Positions 38,343 through 46,308 of a DNA stretch of 64,000 bases are shown piece by piece. The notes under the pieces are model-generated. The model searched no databases, was not told where the DNA came from, and saw only the letters and a list, made by a program, of their open reading frames with translations. The stretch comes from Rhodoferax sp. AJA081-3 (GTDB lineage Bacteria; Pseudomonadota; Gammaproteobacteria; Burkholderiales; Burkholderiaceae_C). How positions within the stretch are numbered: position 1 is the stretch's first letter; every line of letters begins with the position of its first letter. Position numbers and translations under genes: made by a program. The stretch spans positions 2,914,001 through 2,978,000 of the forward strand of contig NZ_CP059068.1 of NCBI RefSeq assembly GCF_017798165.1, written 5' to 3'.

Positions 38343-38392
38343 GCGGGCTCCTGAGAAGAAGCGTGGATCATAGTGTGTGGATAATCGTTCGC

Positions 38393-39079
38393 ATGATCAC
38401 CGTACACCACTTGGAAACCTCCCGTTCACAACGCGTGTTGTGGTTGCTTGAAGAGCTGGGCCTGCCCTATGAGATCAAACGCTACCAGCGTGATCCCAAG
38501 ACCAAGCTGGCCCCCGCCGCGCTAAAGGCAGTGCACCCGCTGGGCAAGTCGCCGGTGATCACCGATGGGGATGAGACCATTGCCGAGTCGGGTGCGATTC
38601 TGGAATACATCGTGGAGCGTTATGGCGCGCAGGCCTCGGGTGACTTGGCCCAATTGCAACCGGCCCCGGGCACCCCAGCCCACCGCCAGTCGCGCTTCTG
38701 GATGCACTATGCCGAAGGCTCGTTGATGAACTGGCTGGTGATGAAGCTGGTGTTCATGACCATACCCACGCAGCCCATGCCATTCTTCGTGCGGCCCATT
38801 GCACGCAAGCTGTGCGGCACCGTGCAGGCCAAGCTGATAGACCCCAACCTGACCACGGCGCTGGCCTTCATCGAAGACCACCTGGGACGCAACACCTGGT
38901 TCGCCGGTGATGCCATCAGCATTGCCGACTTCCAGATGAGTTTTGCGGTGGAGGCGGCGATAGCCCGCAGCTCCAATGCCAGGCACTACACCAAGCTGGC
39001 CGCTTACCGCGACCGCATGGTGGCGCGTCCCGCGTATCAGCGGGCCATAGCCAAAGGTGGTCCCGTCGTGATGGGCTAG
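38393..39079 (+). CDS. Glutathione S-transferase, beta/theta-like
   Basis: 228 residues. The thioredoxin-like domain has HLETSRSQRVLWLLEELGLPYEIKRY, with Ser10/Arg11 positioned as glutathione ligands, and KSPVITDGDETIAESGAILEYIVERYG; the helical domain follows. Divergent from the prolyl oligopeptidase, with the two starts 50 bases apart. Ends two bases before a strong terminator hairpin. Substrate unknown. Confidence 0.9.
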   Translation: MITVHHLETSRSQRVLWLLEELGLPYEIKRYQRDPKTKLAPAALKAVHPLGKSPVITDGDETIAESGAILEYIVERYGAQASGDLAQLQPAPGTPAHRQSRFWMHYAEGSLMNWLVMKLVFMTIPTQPMPFFVRPIARKLCGTVQAKLIDPNLTTALAFIEDHLGRNTWFAGDAISIADFQMSFAVEAAIARSSNARHYTKLAAYRDRMVARPAYQRAIAKGGPVVMG

Positions 39080-39127: not shown

Positions 39128-40021
39128 CTATTCCAGCAACAGGTTCTGCGACAAATACCCATACACCGCGGAAACGCGCCGCAGGTGGCGCGATTCGTTA
39201 TGGGTCAACAACCACAACTCGGTCTGGCATTCGTCCAGCACCTCTGTTAGCTGGGTTAGATCCACTCGCCGCTGGGCCAGAAACACGGGCAGTAAACCAA
39301 TCCCCAAGCCCTGCGCCACCAGCTCGGCCACGGTCAGTATGCTGTTGACGCGGTAACGCGGCGCAACCTTGGGGAAATGTTTCTTGCGCCAGACCACGGA
39401 GGGGTGCTCGGGCAGCGCGTCATCGGGTGCGATCCAGCTGGCCTGTGCAGCGACCGTGTCGTCAAAGCGTTGGATACCACCCTTCTTTCCCGCATACAGC
39501 GCCACCCGTATCGGCCCAATGTGTTTGCCCACCAGGTGCTGGGGTGGACGCTTGGTGGCGCGCACGGCGATGTCGGCATCGCGGCGGGTCAGGCTGGCCA
39601 GTTCGTTGCCAGCATGTAAATCAAAACCGAGCAAAGGATGGCTGGCCTGCAGCGCCTTGAGCGCGGGTGCCACCAGGCCGTGCAGGACCGTGTCCGTGGT
39701 GGTGATGCGCAAGGTGCCTGACACCTGCTCAGGCTGCAATTGCAAAACTGAGCGCGCCGCCTCCAGCTGCGCCTCCACCTGCTCACCATGACCGGCCAGC
39801 TGCAGCGCCAGCTCTGACGGCAGATAACCCGCACGTGTGCGCTCGAACAGGCGCTGACCCAGCCCCTTCTCCACCTTCTGGATGGTTCTGAACACCGTGG
39901 ATGCATCCAGCGACAGGCGCTCTCCGGCATCGGCCAGCGTGCCGGTGCGGGCCAGGGCCAACACCACTTCCAAGTCGGCGGCGCTAAGTTTGTATTGCGT
40001 TTCTGCATTCATGCTTTGCAT
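39128..40021 (-). CDS. LysR-family transcriptional regulator
   Basis: 297 residues. Winged helix LSAADLEVVLALARTGTLADAGERLSLDASTVFRTIQKVEKGLG, then an effector domain beginning GTLRITTTDTVLHGLVAPAL. ATG 40021 or 40012 are both possible. It is divergent from the GST gene at 40091, with a TTTCA-N9-TGAAA inverted repeat in the 69-base gap, so control of that GST and perhaps of the transporter operon behind it is likely. Confidence 0.88.
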   Translation of the reverse strand: MQSMNAETQYKLSAADLEVVLALARTGTLADAGERLSLDASTVFRTIQKVEKGLGQRLFERTRAGYLPSELALQLAGHGEQVEAQLEAARSVLQLQPEQVSGTLRITTTDTVLHGLVAPALKALQASHPLLGFDLHAGNELASLTRRDADIAVRATKRPPQHLVGKHIGPIRVALYAGKKGGIQRFDDTVAAQASWIAPDDALPEHPSVVWRKKHFPKVAPRYRVNSILTVAELVAQGLGIGLLPVFLAQRRVDLTQLTEVLDECQTELWLLTHNESRHLRRVSAVYGYLSQNLLLE

Positions 40022-40090: not shown

Positions 40091-40804
40091 ATGAACCCCA
40101 GCCCCACCCTTAAACAGAAACTCACCCTGGTGAGCCACCTTCTGTGCCCCTACGTGCAACGCGCGGCCATCGTTCTGGCCGAGAAGGGCATTGCCTTTGA
40201 ACGTATCGATATCGACCTGGCGAACAAGCCCGACTGGTTTTTGAAGATTTCGCCGCTGGGCAAGACACCCGTGCTGCTGGTCGACGGCCAAGCCATTTTT
40301 GAGTCCGCCGTCATCTGCGAATACCTAGAGGAGACTACAACGAGCCCTTTGCACCCACGCAACGCCATTACACGCGCACAGCACCGCGGCTGGATGGAGT
40401 TTGGCTCCACCGTGCTCAATGCCATTGCAGGCTTCTATGCCGCGCCCGATGACAAACAACTGGCGGCCAAGTCCGCGGAGATCGCTGCCAAGTTCCAGCA
40501 GGTGGAAGACGCGCTCACGACAACTGCGAAAGGCCCGTACTTTGCCGGCCAGCAGTTCTCCATGGTCGATGCAGTGTTCGGCCCCATCTTCCGTTACTTT
40601 GATGTGTTAGAGACCATAGACGACTTTGGCTTCTTTGCCCACACGCCCAAGGTACGCGCCTGGCGCGCGGCACTTGCGCAGCGCCCGTCTGTGTGCAAAG
40701 CAGTGCGCGCCGACTACCCAGAACTGCTACGGGATTTTCTGCTGGCACGGCAGTCCGCCCTGTCCCGGCGCATGGTGGACGCAGTACACATCGCACAGGT
40801 CTGA
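40091..40804 (+). CDS. Glutathione S-transferase, upstream of ABCC-like exporter
   Basis: 237 residues. Opening LTLVSHLLCPYVQRAAIVLAEKGIAFERIDIDLANKPDWF has the CPYV motif of omega/beta-like or DHAR-like GSTs, with Cys as probable catalytic residue, and KTPVLLVDGQAIFESAVICEYLEE forms the glutathione site. Helical C-terminal half follows. Same strand as, and about 1.1 kb ahead of, the ABCC-type exporter with only the zinc-ribbon gene between; this suggests conjugation followed by export. Divergent LysR gene probably regulates it. Confidence 0.9.
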   Translation: MNPSPTLKQKLTLVSHLLCPYVQRAAIVLAEKGIAFERIDIDLANKPDWFLKISPLGKTPVLLVDGQAIFESAVICEYLEETTTSPLHPRNAITRAQHRGWMEFGSTVLNAIAGFYAAPDDKQLAAKSAEIAAKFQQVEDALTTTAKGPYFAGQQFSMVDAVFGPIFRYFDVLETIDDFGFFAHTPKVRAWRAALAQRPSVCKAVRADYPELLRDFLLARQSALSRRMVDAVHIAQV

Positions 40805-40901
40805 GATTGATCGCTGGCACCACGGAAAGGAAAGGAGAACAGACGCGCAATAATCCCGCTTCCAACAAGGCGCACCAGAACCTCAAGACACGGGACGGGA
40901 T

Positions 40902-41891
40902 ATGGCAGAGAAAGAAATCTTTTACGAAATGCTGTGGGACTGCGACCAGTGCAACACCAAGGGGCTGCTGGGCGATTCACATCGCCACTGCCCCACCTGC
41001 GGTGCGGCGCAGGACCCCACCAAACGCTATTTCCCCGAACCCGGTACCGAGGTTGAGGCCCGCAACCACCAGTTTGTGGGTGCGGACTGGAGCTGTGCTT
41101 TCTGCAGCTCCCCCAACTCCGCGGCGGCCGCACATTGCACCAATTGTGGCGCGGGCCAGGATGGCACCAAACCGGTAGCACTGGTCACCGATACCGCGGC
41201 ACCCGCGCCGGAGCCCATAGCGAGCACTGCGCCTGCTGCGCCGCGTTCCGGCTGGTGGCGTTGGGTGCTGGCCCTCGTTGCATTGGTGGTGGTGGCGCTG
41301 GGCTTTATGTTCACCAGCAAACACGAAGCCACGGCTACTGTGTCGGCCAAAAGCTGGCAACGCGAAATACAAATCGAAAAATTCGGCCCCGTATCCGACT
41401 CCGCCTGGTGCGACAGCATGCCGGGTGATGCCTATGCCGTGAGCCAAAGCCGCGAGCAACGCTCCACCCGCAGCATCCCAGATGGCCAGGTCTGCCATGA
41501 CGAACGTATTGACAAGGGGGATGGCACCTTTGTAAAGCGCCGCGAATGCACGCCCCGCTACCGCGAGGAGCCGGTCTACGACAACCGCTGTCGCTACCAG
41601 GTCAACCGCTGGCGCAGCTACCGCACGGTGAAGGCCGGGCCGCAGACCGCGGCTGCACCGGCGTGGCCAAGCCTAAACAACATCGGCACGGGCAACAGCC
41701 TGGTGGGCAACACCATGGGGGCCGAACGCGCCGGAGCACGTAGTGAAAGTTATGTGTTGTCCCTGCAATCCGAAGGCAGGAGCTGGACCTGCAATGTGAG
41801 CGAAGCGGTGTGGAACAAATACGAACAAGGCACAACCGCACCGATACAGGTGCGCATGACTGGTGGTGCGGATTGCAGTAGCCTCAAATAG
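40902..41891 (+). CDS. Zinc-ribbon membrane-anchored protein, adjacent to ABC exporter
   Basis: 329 residues. Two Cys4 zinc-ribbon units at the N-terminus: WDCDQCNTKGLLGDSHRHCPTCG (residues about 12-34) and WSCAFCSSPNSAAAAHCTNCG (residues about 64-84), the second RanBP2-like. Then a Pro/Ala linker and one transmembrane helix at about residues 123-141 (WVLALVALVVVALGFMF). The rest (about 185 residues, several cysteines, probably periplasmic) matches no family I can name. Its TAG stop is directly followed by the exporter ATG, so expression is coupled. A regulatory or substrate-handling subunit of the exporter is conceivable. Confidence 0.75.
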   Translation: MAEKEIFYEMLWDCDQCNTKGLLGDSHRHCPTCGAAQDPTKRYFPEPGTEVEARNHQFVGADWSCAFCSSPNSAAAAHCTNCGAGQDGTKPVALVTDTAAPAPEPIASTAPAAPRSGWWRWVLALVALVVVALGFMFTSKHEATATVSAKSWQREIQIEKFGPVSDSAWCDSMPGDAYAVSQSREQRSTRSIPDGQVCHDERIDKGDGTFVKRRECTPRYREEPVYDNRCRYQVNRWRSYRTVKAGPQTAAAPAWPSLNNIGTGNSLVGNTMGAERAGARSESYVLSLQSEGRSWTCNVSEAVWNKYEQGTTAPIQVRMTGGADCSSLK

Positions 41892-44800
41892 ATGTTGTTG
41901 CACTACCCGCTTGCGTTCTTAAAGTCCCTGGTCCAAGACTACCAACGGCACCTGACACCCCAACTGCAAGGCATGGCCCGCGGCCAGCCTGCACCCGGCA
42001 TACACGACATGGACCCGGCCATAGAAGCCATGGAGCAGACCCATGGCCGCGCGCTGCTGCAGTTGGACACGGCCAATGGGTCCTGGGCGTTCATCCGCAG
42101 CATCATTCGGTCTACCCGGCCCCACCTGTGGTGGACCCTGGTCTACATGGCCATCACCACCATGGCAGCTGCAGCACCGGCGCTGCTGATCGAACAGGTC
42201 ATCACCCGATTCGACGCCATCAAGGCAGCGCCCTGGCTGCCCGAGCACGTGGCGCTGCTGCTGGCCTTTCCGCTGGTGATTTATGTCACTAATGTCACGT
42301 TTATCCGTTACCTGAAAGCCTTCTCGCAGGCGCACCTGTTGCAGCGCAGCGCGCTGATGCAAGCCTTTGCCCAAAAGTGGTTCCGGCTGGACCCGCGTGT
42401 GCGCCACGAGCTGCCGCAGGGCAATACCCAAAACCTGATGCACGTGGATGTGCCAGCGGTCAGCCACTGTGTGGAGCGCATTGTGGATGCCGGCATGGTG
42501 GTGGTCCATATCGCCATCGCGGGTCTCTTGTTGTGGCGCTACTTGGGGGTCACCGCACTGGTGGGCCTGGGCCTGATGGCGCTAAGCATGCCCGTGCTGA
42601 AATACATCGTGCGCGAAACCGGCCAGCGCCAGACCGACCTGCTGCGCGCCCGCGACCAGCGGCTGGATTTGTTGTCGCAGATTCTGACGGCCATCAAGGT
42701 CATCAAACTCTCGGGCTGGTCCGACATCTTTCTGGGCCGCACGCGGCGTGCGCGCAGTGCGGAGGTGGACCGCCTGATCTCGGTCATGCTGCTGCAGACC
42801 CGCTCATCCCTGGTGTTCTCTTGCACCGGCTTGGTGGTGGCTACTGCCACTTACGGCCTCTACATCTGGCGGGGTGGCGAGCTGAATGCGGCCATGTTGA
42901 TTCCCACGCTGTTGATTTTTCAGGGGCTCGAATTTCCGTTCGTGGTGCTCAGCGATGTGGCCGGCATCCTGGCACAGACCGATGTGTCAGCCAAGCGGCT
43001 GCTGGACTTTTTCAATCTGAAGGACGCCGAACCCGCCAAGCCCGCAGAGGCCGGGCCAGTGGGCCTGCAGATCAACGATGTCAGCTTCAGCGCCGTGGAA
43101 GGCCAGCCCATTCTGCGCGATATCACGCTGGACCTGCAGGCCGGCCAGAGCCTGGCCATCGTCGGGCCCGTGGGCGCCGGCAAGTCCGTGCTGCTGCGCC
43201 TGCTGCTATCGGAGTACGCGGCCAGCAGCGGTGTCGTCCGCTGGTGCGGCAGACCGCAGTTTGCCTACTGCCCGCAAGAGACTTTTATTGCCAGCGGCAC
43301 GCTGCGCGACAACCTGACGCTGTATGGCGAGGGCGAACACCTGAGCGACGCCCACATCCAGCGCGCCCTGCAACTGGCCAGCCTGTCGCACGAGGTCAAC
43401 CAATGGCCCGCCGGGCTTGACACCGAGATTGGCGAGCGCGGGCTCAACCTCTCGGGCGGGCAGAAACAACGCGTGTCGCTGGCACGCGCAGTGCTGCACC
43501 CGGCCAATGTGGTGATTCTGGATGACCCGCTGTCCGCGCTGGACGTAGGGACCGAGGGGCGCATTGCCGACGACTTGCTGTTTGGCGAGTGGAAAGACAC
43601 GCTGCGCATTTGCGTGACCCACCGCCTGGCACACCTGGACCGGTTTGACCGCATCCTGTTCATCGACACCGATGGCCGCGGTGAATTTGGCACGCTGGAC
43701 CAGTTGCGCACGGCCAATGCCCGCTTCTCCAACTTCTTGCGCATCGAGCTGGAAGGCCATGCCGACCATGCGGCTGTGTTGCAGCACCTTGGGGGCAACG
43801 CGGCATCGGTGTCCGAGAAAGAAGAAAGCCTGACCGCCGTAGAGGGTCAGGCCGTGGGCAAGGTGCGCGCTGCGATGTGGAAGAACCTGCTGCTGACGCT
43901 GGGTGAAAGTGGCTGGCAGGGCCATGCAGTCGGCGGTGCCGTACTCGTGCTGGGCCTGATGTTTGTGGCCAGTGCCCTGCCGATGTCACAGCAGTATTTG
44001 ATGTCACACATGGACGGCACCCACGCCATCACACCCTGGCAGTTTTTTGCCGCCTTCGCCGGCCTCACCCTCATCATCCTGCTGGTGAGTTACGTGGCGC
44101 AGGCCACCTTTCGCCGGGCTTGCGCCCACACCGCACAAAAGGCGCACGACAACATGCTGACCGGGGTGATGCAGTCCCCACTGCGCTTTTTTGAGACTAC
44201 GCCATCGGGCCGCATGCTGAACCGCTTCTCGGCCGACATCCAGCAGCTGGATGTGGAATTGGCCGCGCGGGGCTTTCGCTTTACCCATGGCGCGACCACT
44301 GCCCTGGCCTGTGCACTGGGCGTGGTGGCGGTGACTGCACTGGCCGCCCTGCCCTTCACGCTGGCCACCTATGTATCGGTGCGCGTGTCGCGCCTCTACG
44401 GTGTAGCGATCCGCGAGAACTCGCGCGTGTCATCGGTGGTGCGTTCACCGGTGTTCTCACTGTTCAACGACGGCCTGCGCGGCCACTCCACGCTGCGTGC
44501 CTTTGGCCGCGAGGCCAATCTGGTGGCGCGCTTCGACCAGGCCAACCACCTGCGGCTGAACACCGAGATGCGGGGCTGGAACCTGGCCTTCTGGCTGGGC
44601 ATGCGCCTGACCCTGGTCTCCTGTGTGTTGATGTGCTGCCTGGTCTTGCCCTTCTTCTGGTTAGGGCCACAGCCCTGGCTTCCCAGCTTTGGCGCGGGCA
44701 CGGTGGGCCTGCTGCTGGCCCTGACCTTTGGCCTGCTGGACCGCATAGACCGGCTGTGCCGCGACTTCTTTGCACTGGCCACCGTGTTGGTGCCGTGGGA

Positions 44801-45578
44801 GCGCTGCCAGCAGTGGGCCGAACTGCCAGCGGAGGCCGATGCGCACACGCAGGCAGCGGCACCCGCCCCGGTTCCCGATAACTGGCCCAGCGCCGGCCAC
44901 ATCGAGTTTCGCAATGCCTGCCTGCGGTATGCGCCTGAGCTGCCAGCCGTGGTGGAAGACGCCAGCTTTACGGTGGCAGCGCAGAGCCACGTGGCCCTGC
45001 TGGGCCGCACCGGGGCCGGTAAGTCAACCGTGCTGCTGGCCCTGCTGCGCACACTCAGCGTGGACAGGGGTGACATCTTGATTGACGGCATCAACATCAA
45101 CGACGTGCCCCATGCACGCCTGCGCCAGGCCATTGCCTATGTGCCGCAAGAGCCGGTGCTGTTCCTGGGGCCGCTGCGTGCGTCCATTGACGTGACCGGG
45201 GACTACAGCGACGACGACATCCAGGCCGCGCTGGTCCAGATTGGTCTGGCCGACTTTGTGGCCAACCTGCCCCTGGGCCTGGACACACCGCTGGAAGAAG
45301 GCGGCCGCAATATCAGCGCCGGCCAGCGCCAGTTGATCTGCCTGGCCCGCGCCCTGTTGTCCAAAGCGCGCATCGTGCTGATGGACGAGGCCACCGCCAG
45401 CGTGGATGTGGAAACCGATGAACTGATCCGCGCGGCTATCCAGAAACACCTGCGCGGCACCACCATTGTGCTGATTGCGCACCGGCCCAGCTCTTTGGCG
45501 CTGTGTGACCAGTGGATACACGTGGAGCATGGCCGCACCACGGTGGTGGACCGCACCGTCACGGCGCTGCAAGCGTGA
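41892..45578 (+). CDS. Full-length ABCC/MRP-like ABC exporter (TMD-NBD-TMD-NBD in one chain)
   Basis: 1228 residues with two membrane domains and two nucleotide-binding domains fused, rare in bacteria. NBD1: Walker A GPVGAGKS 425-432, LSGGQ 520-524, Walker B ending Asp544-Asp545 (ILDDPLSALD), so the catalytic Glu is Asp. NBD2: Walker A GRTGAGKS 1038-1045, ISAGQ 1141-1145, Walker B Asp1165-Glu1166. This asymmetry, plus TEIGERGLNLSGGQKQRVS, FFETTPSGRMLNRFSADI and GHIEFRNACLRYAPEL, mirrors eukaryotic ABCC (MRP) proteins. There is no N-terminal TMD0. ABCC pumps export glutathione and other anionic conjugates; the upstream GST gene supports such a role here (inference). Confidence 0.93.
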   Translation: MLLHYPLAFLKSLVQDYQRHLTPQLQGMARGQPAPGIHDMDPAIEAMEQTHGRALLQLDTANGSWAFIRSIIRSTRPHLWWTLVYMAITTMAAAAPALLIEQVITRFDAIKAAPWLPEHVALLLAFPLVIYVTNVTFIRYLKAFSQAHLLQRSALMQAFAQKWFRLDPRVRHELPQGNTQNLMHVDVPAVSHCVERIVDAGMVVVHIAIAGLLLWRYLGVTALVGLGLMALSMPVLKYIVRETGQRQTDLLRARDQRLDLLSQILTAIKVIKLSGWSDIFLGRTRRARSAEVDRLISVMLLQTRSSLVFSCTGLVVATATYGLYIWRGGELNAAMLIPTLLIFQGLEFPFVVLSDVAGILAQTDVSAKRLLDFFNLKDAEPAKPAEAGPVGLQINDVSFSAVEGQPILRDITLDLQAGQSLAIVGPVGAGKSVLLRLLLSEYAASSGVVRWCGRPQFAYCPQETFIASGTLRDNLTLYGEGEHLSDAHIQRALQLASLSHEVNQWPAGLDTEIGERGLNLSGGQKQRVSLARAVLHPANVVILDDPLSALDVGTEGRIADDLLFGEWKDTLRICVTHRLAHLDRFDRILFIDTDGRGEFGTLDQLRTANARFSNFLRIELEGHADHAAVLQHLGGNAASVSEKEESLTAVEGQAVGKVRAAMWKNLLLTLGESGWQGHAVGGAVLVLGLMFVASALPMSQQYLMSHMDGTHAITPWQFFAAFAGLTLIILLVSYVAQATFRRACAHTAQKAHDNMLTGVMQSPLRFFETTPSGRMLNRFSADIQQLDVELAARGFRFTHGATTALACALGVVAVTALAALPFTLATYVSVRVSRLYGVAIRENSRVSSVVRSPVFSLFNDGLRGHSTLRAFGREANLVARFDQANHLRLNTEMRGWNLAFWLGMRLTLVSCVLMCCLVLPFFWLGPQPWLPSFGAGTVGLLLALTFGLLDRIDRLCRDFFALATVLVPWERCQQWAELPAEADAHTQAAAPAPVPDNWPSAGHIEFRNACLRYAPELPAVVEDASFTVAAQSHVALLGRTGAGKSTVLLALLRTLSVDRGDILIDGININDVPHARLRQAIAYVPQEPVLFLGPLRASIDVTGDYSDDDIQAALVQIGLADFVANLPLGLDTPLEEGGRNISAGQRQLICLARALLSKARIVLMDEATASVDVETDELIRAAIQKHLRGTTIVLIAHRPSSLALCDQWIHVEHGRTTVVDRTVTALQA

Positions 45579-45681
45579 TAGCGTCTTGCAAACCGCTCGT
45601 ACAACTTTACATGGAGGGGCTTGAATCGCGTGGCGATCAGGACCATGATGATGTGGTGAGAACTTTCGAGGAGGCTGCCAG

Positions 45682-46308
45682 ATGGCAATCATGACAAGTA
45701 ACACCCTTTTGAAACGCCTGGCGCGTACGGCGTTGGTCGCAGCGGCCGTCGTGTTGGCCGGTTGCGCGACCGTGTCCACGGTCGAGAGCGATGTGCAGAG
45801 TTTTGCCACCACGCCCACCCCGGTACAGCCTGGCACGTTCCGCTTCGAGCGGTTGCCGTCGCAAGATGTAGACGCCGCACAAGCCGCATCGCTGGAAAAC
45901 ATGGCACAGGCAGCGTTGGCAAAGTTTGGCTTTAGCCGCAATGACACCGGTGCGCGCTACAGCGTGCAAATCGGCGCGGGCACGGTAGAGACCGTGTCGA
46001 CCTTCTCGGACCCCTTCTTCGGGCGCTCGGCGTGGTCACCGTTTGGCCGGCCCCGCATGTGGCCCGGCCGGCACTTCTACGGCTCCCCCTGGTTGATGGA
46101 CCGCGAAAGTTATGTGACCCGCGTGCGTATGGAGATCCGCGATCTGGGCACCGGCAAGGTGGTGTACGAGAGCACAGCCACCAATGAGGAGAGCTGGTTC
46201 AACCCCGCCCGGGTTTTGCCTGCCCTGTTTGAAGCGGCGATGGCGGACTTTCCCTCACCGCCCAAGGGTATACGCAAGGTTGTCGTGAAGCTGCCCGGTG
46301 CGCCGTAA
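45682..46308 (+). CDS. DUF4136-type outer-membrane lipoprotein
   Basis: 208 residues. Signal peptide with lipobox VLAGC (Cys about residue 28), then a DUF4136 domain: ATVSTVESDVQSF, PGTFRFERLPSQD, AQAALAKFGFSRNDTGARYSVQI and a Phe/Pro/Arg-rich loop (SAWSPFGRPRMWPGRHFYGSPW). Strong GAGGAGG ribosome site. Follows the exporter by about 100 bases on the same strand and may be its last cistron. Function of DUF4136 lipoproteins is not established. Confidence 0.82.
   Translation: MAIMTSNTLLKRLARTALVAAAVVLAGCATVSTVESDVQSFATTPTPVQPGTFRFERLPSQDVDAAQAASLENMAQAALAKFGFSRNDTGARYSVQIGAGTVETVSTFSDPFFGRSAWSPFGRPRMWPGRHFYGSPWLMDRESYVTRVRMEIRDLGTGKVVYESTATNEESWFNPARVLPALFEAAMADFPSPPKGIRKVVVKLPGAP

What the first reader, a model, noticed from the sequence alone, without database searches (positions are those of the whole stretch)
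40091..46308. Bacterial GST - zinc-ribbon - ABCC/MRP-like exporter - lipoprotein module
A glutathione transferase gene is followed on the same strand by a zinc-ribbon membrane protein, a full-length ABC exporter with strong ABCC (multidrug-resistance protein) character, and a DUF4136 lipoprotein; the zinc-ribbon stop touches the exporter start. In eukaryotes GST conjugation followed by ABCC export is the classical detoxification route. A single operon that could hold both steps in a bacterium would be notable. A divergent LysR regulator may make it inducible.
Basis: partly seen in the sequence, partly recalled or inferred. Interest (0 to 1): 0.85.

Follow-up and report, generated by a model that had tools for sequence, protein, structure and literature searches.

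The report
Bacterial MRP-like exporter near a GST
A betaproteobacterium related to Rhodoferax carries a complete export pump of the family that includes human MRP1 and CFTR, but the idea that it forms a glutathione detoxification operon with the neighbouring GST gene is not supported.

Summary
The four genes and the divergent LysR gene exist as described. The exporter (41892-45578, 1228 aa) is a genuine ABCC-type full-length pump: its best solved relatives are AtABCC2 and MRP1, it has ABCC-type asymmetric ATP sites, and the tree puts it with eukaryotic and other bacterial ABCC proteins, apart from bacterial half-transporters. The GST-conjugation/ABCC-export module is not supported. The GST is Cys-type (omega-like; recalled as thiol transfer rather than conjugation). 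It has no ortholog in 6 of the 7 other ABCC-bearing genomes of the genus (all drafts). In the seventh, two opposite-strand genes separate the zinc ribbon from the exporter. Six of eleven MRP1 TM15-17 positions compared are changed, among them several tied to glutathione. Best reading: a bacterial ABCC exporter of unknown, probably anionic, substrate that sits beside a LysR-GST-zinc-ribbon cassette in one Rhodoferax-like subclade. More novel: ABCC pumps form a bacterial family, the three eukaryotic sequences used fall among bacterial ones in the tree, and Bdellovibrionota-type members keep most of the MRP1 glutathione residues.

The parts
39128..40021 (-). LysR-type regulator, divergent from the GST gene
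   Evidence: Pfam HTH_1 + LysR_substrate; upstream of the GST also in G326 (93.9% identity) and G325 (89.4%)
40091..40804 (+). Cys-type (omega-like) glutathione transferase, Cys19 in a C-P-Y motif
   Evidence: Pfam GST_N/GST_C; best PDB matches GSTO1; Cys-Pro motif in 119 of 120 listed proteins, own one included
40902..41891 (+). double zinc-ribbon protein with one predicted long hydrophobic helix (119-138) and a beta-rich C-terminal part
   Evidence: invariant Cys pairs in 22 of 22 aligned rows; AlphaFold2 model pLDDT 77, pTM 0.43; no PDB fold match at E<=0.001
41892..45578 (+). ABCC-type full-length ABC exporter (TMD1-NBD1-TMD2-NBD2, 1228 aa)
41892..42071 (+). residues 1-60: N-terminal helices that align with ABCC structures (L0/lasso region; name recalled) but not with ABCB ones
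   Evidence: of the 50 rows listed, 34 of 38 ABCC rows align from model residue 20 or earlier; 12 of 12 ABCB rows start at 61-65
43056..43739 (+). NBD1: Walker A 425, signature LSGGQ 520, Walker B VVILDDP with Asp in place of the catalytic Glu
44568..44807 (+). TM16-TM17 equivalent of MRP1: W901, R905 and R957 kept (W1198, R1202, R1249); F900, T907, D953, R954, F960, A961 replace R1197, E1204, N1245, W1246, S1252, E1253
44892..45539 (+). NBD2: Walker A 1038, non-canonical signature ISAGQ 1141, Walker B LMDEA with catalytic Glu
45682..46308 (+). DUF4136 lipoprotein; also follows the exporter in G326 (73% identity)

Best explanation
41892-45578 encodes a genuine bacterial ABCC-type exporter: one chain with two membrane halves and two unequal ATP sites (one degenerate, one hydrolytic), in the inner membrane, moving a cytoplasmic substrate outwards by alternating access. 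The substrate is probably an organic anion or amphipathic compound but is unknown. It belongs to a clade patchily present in Rhodoferax-like bacteria; in 6 of the 8 genomes of the genus that have it, no ortholog of the neighbouring GST exists. In one subclade it sits downstream of a LysR / Cys-type GST / zinc-ribbon cassette. That makes the apparent detoxification module a local arrangement, not a conserved GST-to-ABCC pathway; the GST is more likely a glutathione-dependent thiol oxidoreductase. Shown: ABCC membership, patchiness, variable context, changed glutathione-site residues, Cys-type GST. Inferred: membrane location, direction, substrate class, GST activity.
For: TIGR00957 (MRP) is the top NCBIfam model at 549.5 bits. 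All 60 listed PDB matches (of 402) are ABCC members (AtABCC2 507 bits, MRP1 493). Tested separately, both halves match ABCC first. C-half tree: ABCC rows apart from bacterial half-transporters at 99/97 with all 17 of these and 100/100 with the two longest rows left out; forcing the window clade with the half-transporters gives p-AU 0.02, with the eukaryotes alone 5e-5. NBD1 LDDP, NBD2 ISAGQ, 95 vs 103 residues from Walker A to signature. Foldseek: 50 of 50 listed PDB matches are ABCC. Patchy: 8 of 103 genus genomes, 1 of 299 in family, 1 of 399 in order; the 1 is the own genome. Variable neighbours: ispD/glgC, glycogen phosphorylase/lytic transglycosylase, ppnP/argG/ArsC-like. GST ortholog in 2 of 13 other zinc-ribbon genomes.
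Against: TIGR00957 lies far below its curated cut-off (549.5 vs 1470), and the CydC model TIGR02868 is just above its own (336.1 vs 329.05), the score summed over two stretches. The AU test against grouping with half-transporters is only moderate (p 0.02), and long branches and odd letter make-up (the window protein's row among them) were flagged. GST, zinc ribbon and exporter do stay together in close relatives (8 of 22), so a functional link in that subclade is possible. The genomes lacking the GST are drafts. The pump keeps R841, R845, W901, R905 and R957 (MRP1 R1138, R1142, W1198, R1202, R1249), and AtABCC2 also lacks N1245/W1246, so glutathione-conjugate transport is not excluded.
Confidence: 0.72

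Rival explanations
1. One reading: one LysR-controlled operon in which the GST conjugates electrophiles to glutathione and the ABCC pump exports the conjugates.
Against: No GST ortholog in 6 of 7 other ABCC genomes of the genus; opposite-strand genes intervene in G326; Cys-type GST; MRP1 R1197, N1245, W1246, S1252, E1253 replaced.
Confidence: 0.12
2. The functional pair is zinc-ribbon protein plus ABCC pump, the zinc-ribbon protein being a membrane partner or regulator of export, and the GST is incidental.
For: A zinc-ribbon match is in 8 of 8 ABCC genomes (in G357 only a 48-residue piece) but in 6 of 95 others of the genus, even where on another contig; stop/start abutment here.
Against: On an rpoB tree of 26 genomes only 3 independent contrasts lie on well-supported branches, too few for significance; 6 genomes have the zinc-ribbon gene without the pump; in 6 of the 8 the two genes lie on different contigs.
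Confidence: 0.12
3. The exporter reached these bacteria by recent transfer from a eukaryote.
For: Patchy presence in one bacterial genus; strong match to plant and animal ABCC.
Against: It groups with other bacterial-type ABCC proteins at 100/97, not with the three eukaryotic sequences; holding it with them is rejected, p-AU 5e-5.
Confidence: 0.04

Closest known systems
Eukaryotic ABCC/MRP exporters (MRP1, MRP2, AtABCC2, YCF1)
   Same: Fused TMD-NBD-TMD-NBD chain, degenerate NBD1 catalytic residue, non-canonical NBD2 signature, N-terminal segment that aligns with theirs, best sequence and fold matches
   Different: No TMD0 (the chain starts at the level of the L0 region; names recalled); 22-28% identity in the structural alignments to ABCC rows; 6 of 11 MRP1 TM15-17 positions compared are changed; bacterial, beside a Cys-type GST
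Bdellovibrionota-type bacterial ABCC proteins (P0083-P0120; three of the listed carry names Pseudobdellovibrio, Oligoflexia, Bdellovibrionota, the rest are unnamed)
   Same: Similar length, LDDP in NBD1 where the motif search found it, neighbouring clade in the tree
   Different: 31-36% identity; the 16 rows compared keep MRP1 R1197 (16), N1245 (15), W1246 (15), R1249 (15); the window clade keeps only R1249 of these
NaAtm1 (Novosphingobium), a bacterial exporter crystallised with GSH or GSSG
   Same: A bacterial ABC exporter tied to glutathione (passages of PMC7203140 and PMC4156053 seen; the former calls it an MRP1 ortholog)
   Different: Aligned with the ATM/ABCB7 family in PMC4156053; a homodimeric half-transporter (recalled), not a fused ABCC
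Omega-class and related Cys-type GSTs (GSTO1)
   Same: The GST gene product aligns its Cys19 with the Cys of the GSTO1 CPF motif
   Different: Bacterial, 237 aa; activity untested

Membership tests
ABCC subfamily | closest by sequence to ABCC rather than ABCB or bacterial exporters, each half on its own | tested here: met
   60 of 60 listed PDB hits ABCC for the whole chain and for the N-half; C-half: first 53 rows ABCC, then Ste6 (237 bits) and BSEP (230), 55 of 60 listed rows ABCC
ABCC subfamily | groups with ABCC in a tree | tested here: met
   only three eukaryotic sequences, C-halves only, long branches flagged
ABCC subfamily | asymmetric ATP sites: Asp for catalytic Glu in NBD1, altered signature in NBD2, shorter NBD1 (features recalled) | tested here: met
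   VVILDDP, ISAGQ, 95 vs 103 residues from Walker A to signature
ABCC subfamily | L0/lasso N-terminal segment (recalled) | tested here: met
   predicted model only; ABCC rows align from the N-terminal residues, ABCB rows from 61-65; pLDDT of residues 1-60 is 60-89 by blocks of ten
MRP equivalog (NCBIfam TIGR00957) | score above the curated cut-off | tested here: not met
   549.5 against 1470 bits: subfamily member, not an MRP equivalog
MRP1-like glutathione-conjugate transporter | residues of TM15-17 linked to glutathione (R1138, R1142, N1245, R1249, S1252, E1253 per a passage of PMC7203140; R1197 recalled) | tested here: not met
   R1138, R1142, R1249 kept; R1197, N1245, S1252, E1253 replaced in the window protein
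MRP1-like glutathione-conjugate transporter | transports glutathione conjugates | not testable with these tools
   needs vesicle or proteoliposome assay
CydDC (CydC) | NCBIfam TIGR02868 cut-off | tested here: inconclusive
   336.1 against 329.05 bits summed over two stretches; the MRP model scores 213 bits more
Bacterial ABCB-type half-transporters | groups with them in a tree | tested here: not met
   separated at 99/97 and 100/100; p-AU 0.0216 when forced together
GST-ABCC detoxification operon | GST conserved next to the exporter | tested here: not met
   1 of 7 other genus genomes has the GST ortholog; linkage only in the >=79% subclade
GST-ABCC detoxification operon | conjugating (Tyr/Ser-type) GST | tested here: not met
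   Cys19-Pro-Tyr aligned with the GSTO1 Cys; class chemistry recalled, activity untested
GST-ABCC detoxification operon | single transcript | not testable with these tools
   no terminator-like site in the gaps, which proves nothing

The most novel reading that the evidence does not exclude
ABCC exporters are an old bacterial family: fused ABCC pumps in Rhodoferax-like, Bdellovibrionota-type, Myxococcota and cyanobacterial genomes surround the eukaryotic sequences in the tree. Bdellovibrionota-type members already carry most of the MRP1 glutathione residues, and a two-gene ABCC in Fluviispira may preserve the state before fusion. The window's clade would then be a bacterial branch that changed substrate, and eukaryotic MRP/CFTR/SUR proteins would descend from a bacterial exporter that already had a glutathione-type site.
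Probability: 0.3. Interest if true: 0.78.

Novelty: new variant of a known kind. Interest (0 to 1): 0.52.

Why it matters
ABCC pumps are studied almost only in eukaryotes (drug resistance, cystic fibrosis, KATP channels; recalled). Short, TMD0-less bacterial members of about 1,230 residues would be simple experimental models of asymmetric ABCC pumps, and they bear on where the family came from. Showing that the GST neighbour is probably not a conserved partner guards against a tempting but weakly founded detoxification annotation.

Tried and rejected
Plasmid origin: no match to the exporter among 72,556 plasmid records at E<=1e-80. Zinc-ribbon/ABCC co-occurrence as proof of a functional link: 8 of 8 against 6 of 95, but only 3 independent contrasts on well-supported branches of the rpoB tree (5 on all branches), so inconclusive (26 of the 30 chosen genomes used: G334 gave no rpoB match, G287 was lost in my ORF extraction, G311 and G324 had only fragments and were left out; G326 and G336 went in with about 30% of the columns). 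Fold of the zinc-ribbon protein: no PDB match at E<=0.001, with a modest model, pTM 0.43. Literature: no paper describing ABCC exporters in bacteria was seen among the titles and abstract beginnings listed (one search listed all 17 papers found, the others only the top 10-15 of 91-354; Rhodoferax, GST, ABC transporter, operon) gave one paper, on Polaromonas plasmids. This is an open-licence library. PMC4111409, PMC7203140 and PMC4156053 were seen as passages only. One Pseudomonadota genome (G887) has a weak match (28%, E 1.9e-68) that was not classified.

The thresholds (1e-120; 1e-75; 1e-65) would miss diverged ABCC proteins, and the genome sets overlap. The motif search was too narrow for many rows (printed as noSig1), so its LDDP result covers only the rows printed.
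Full report
What is there. Pfam confirms the LysR, GST, exporter and DUF4136 products; the zinc-ribbon protein has no family above cut-off, only a sub-threshold double-zinc-ribbon hit. The stop of the zinc-ribbon gene abuts the exporter start. The window lies in a single-contig 5.17 Mb genome, where the exporter gene itself is the only match over the whole query (95 matches listed). Several named relatives are called Rhodoferax, so I call the genus Rhodoferax-like; the genome itself is unnamed.

The exporter is ABCC. The best NCBIfam model is MRP (TIGR00957, 549.5 bits), ahead of CFTR (372.8) and of bacterial models at 361.2 or less. It is below the MRP equivalog cut-off of 1470, and the CydC model just passes its own cut-off (336.1 vs 329.05) by adding two stretches. 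All 60 listed PDB matches of 402 are ABCC members. The N-half alone gives 60 ABCC rows of 60 listed. With the C-half alone the first 53 rows are ABCC, then Ste6, four BSEP rows and two more CFTR rows. NBD1 has Asp where the catalytic Glu should be and NBD2 has ISAGQ; the Walker A-to-signature distance is 95 residues in NBD1 and 103 in NBD2. The AlphaFold2 model of residues 1-1200 (pLDDT 82.7, pTM 0.78) matches ABCC structures in 50 of 50 listed Foldseek rows. In the second alignment (50 rows listed), 34 of 38 ABCC rows align from model residue 20 or earlier and 4 from 40-45, while 12 of 12 ABCB rows start at residues 61-65, so the first 60 residues correspond to a segment that ABCC structures have and these ABCB structures lack. 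Z differs little between the groups (39.0 best ABCC, 36.6 best ABCB1).

Tree. C-halves of 55 sequences. All 17 rows that I labelled half-transporters lie on one side of a 99/97 branch; 16 of them are together at 100/100, the seventeenth (L029) is a very long branch next to ABCC. The ABCC side holds the window clade (11 rows, 100/100), joined at 100/99 by P0080-P0082 and at 100/97 by Bdellovibrionota-type proteins. Eukaryotic MRP1, AtABCC2 and ABCC5 sit with cyanobacterial (L012), delta/Myxococcota (L013, L014) and Silvanigrellales (L015) proteins at 98/92. With the two longest rows left out, half-transporters and window clade are each one side of a 100/100 branch and the eukaryotes of a 92/78 branch. 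Holding the window clade with the eukaryotes alone is rejected (p-AU 5e-5), with the half-transporters less strongly (p-AU 0.02). Only three eukaryotic sequences were used; long branches and, for a few rows including the window protein, odd composition were flagged.

Distribution and context. The exporter is found in 8 of 103 genomes of the genus (E<=1e-60). The own genome was the only hit among 299 of the family (E<=1e-120) and 399 of the order (E<=1e-75); 2 of 398 of the phylum hit (E<=1e-65). In the 88%-identical relative G326 the order is S9 peptidase, second GST, LysR, DoxX, GST, zinc ribbon, then on the other strand a short-chain dehydrogenase and an acetoacetate decarboxylase, then exporter and DUF4136. 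In the other exporter loci (L009, L095, L097-L101) no GST or zinc ribbon was found at E<=1e-5 in the 3.9-19.9 kb held; in L009 and L101 the exporter lies at a contig edge, so its upstream side is unseen. Neighbours differ where examined: ispD and glgC (L097); glycogen phosphorylase and a lytic transglycosylase (L098, and by eye L099); ppnP, argG and an ArsC-like gene (L100). The GST ortholog is absent (E<=1e-40) from 6 of the 7 other ABCC genomes; these six are drafts of 66-93% completeness. Against this, contig lengths coincide between exporter and GST and/or zinc-ribbon hits for 8 of 22 relatives at 79% identity or more (0.14 expected by jittered lengths) and for 0 of 43 at 63-77%. So the cassette is a real feature of one subclade.

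The GST. It is closest to GSTO1 among solved structures and aligns Cys19 with the GSTO1 Cys. The Cys-Pro motif is in 119 of 120 listed proteins, own one included. Cys-type GSTs are known (recalled) mainly for thiol transfer, deglutathionylation and dehydroascorbate reduction, not for the classical conjugation step.

The glutathione site. A passage of PMC7203140 names R1138, R1142, S1252 and E1253 of MRP1 for GSH binding or transport and R1249 and N1245 for the GSH moiety of LTC4; another says that W1246C loses drug resistance but keeps verapamil-stimulated GSH transport, so W1246 is a drug-site rather than a GSH residue. R1197, W1198, R1202 and E1204 were added from recall. Of these 11 positions the window protein keeps five, R1138, R1142, W1198, R1202, R1249 (R841, R845, W901, R905, R957), and changes six, with F900, T907, D953, R954, F960, A961 for R1197, E1204, N1245, W1246, S1252, E1253. 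In the 11 window-clade rows W1246 is R in 11 and R1197 is F in 10 and L in 1. The 16 Bdellovibrionota-type rows keep R1197 in 16, N1245, W1246 and R1249 in 15 each, S1252 in 10 and E1253 in 8 (D in 7) (similar on a second alignment). AtABCC2 has T and G at N1245 and W1246, so the change argues for a different site, not for inability to carry conjugates.

How it probably works. As an ABCC pump: substrate binds in the cytoplasm-facing cavity, two ATP bind, one site (NBD2 Glu with the NBD1 signature) hydrolyses and the other mostly holds ATP, and the substrate is released to the periplasm. This is inferred from the family. The substrate is unknown; the retained arginines suggest an anion. The zinc-ribbon protein co-occurs with the pump in 8 of 8 genomes but is also in 6 of 95 without it, and with 3 independent contrasts the tree cannot separate a functional link from shared descent.

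Verdict. Family assignment confirmed; detoxification module not supported; interest rests on the bacterial ABCC family itself.

Noticed in passing
L021:8566-12391 (Fluviispira multicolorata): An ABCC-like exporter encoded as two ORFs overlapping by 23 bp (N-half, C-half); the C-half branches beside the fused ABCC C-halves on a long branch and keeps several MRP1 residues. A possible heterodimeric, pre-fusion ABCC.
   Followed up: partly
P0083-P0120 (three of the listed named Pseudobdellovibrio, Oligoflexia, Bdellovibrionota): Bacterial-type full-length ABCC proteins that keep the MRP1 residues R1197, N1245, W1246, R1249 in 15-16 of 16 rows compared.
   Followed up: partly
window 38363-39079: A second GST gene (no Cys-Pro motif in its first 40 residues) on the far side of the LysR gene; also next to LysR in G326 at 89% identity.
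   Followed up: no
window 40902-41891: A zinc-ribbon membrane protein family mostly without a Pfam match above cut-off: 694 homologs at E<=1e-5, with further invariant cysteines in the C-terminal part.
   Followed up: partly
L096:6016-9851: Relative to the window, G326 has a DoxX gene between LysR and GST and a dehydrogenase plus acetoacetate decarboxylase between zinc ribbon and exporter: the locus is a site of gene gain or loss.
   Followed up: partly
L012 (Aphanothece), L013-L014 (delta/Myxococcota), L015 (Silvanigrellales): Fused ABCC exporters in further phyla, the closest bacterial rows to the three eukaryotic ABCC sequences in the tree.
   Followed up: partly
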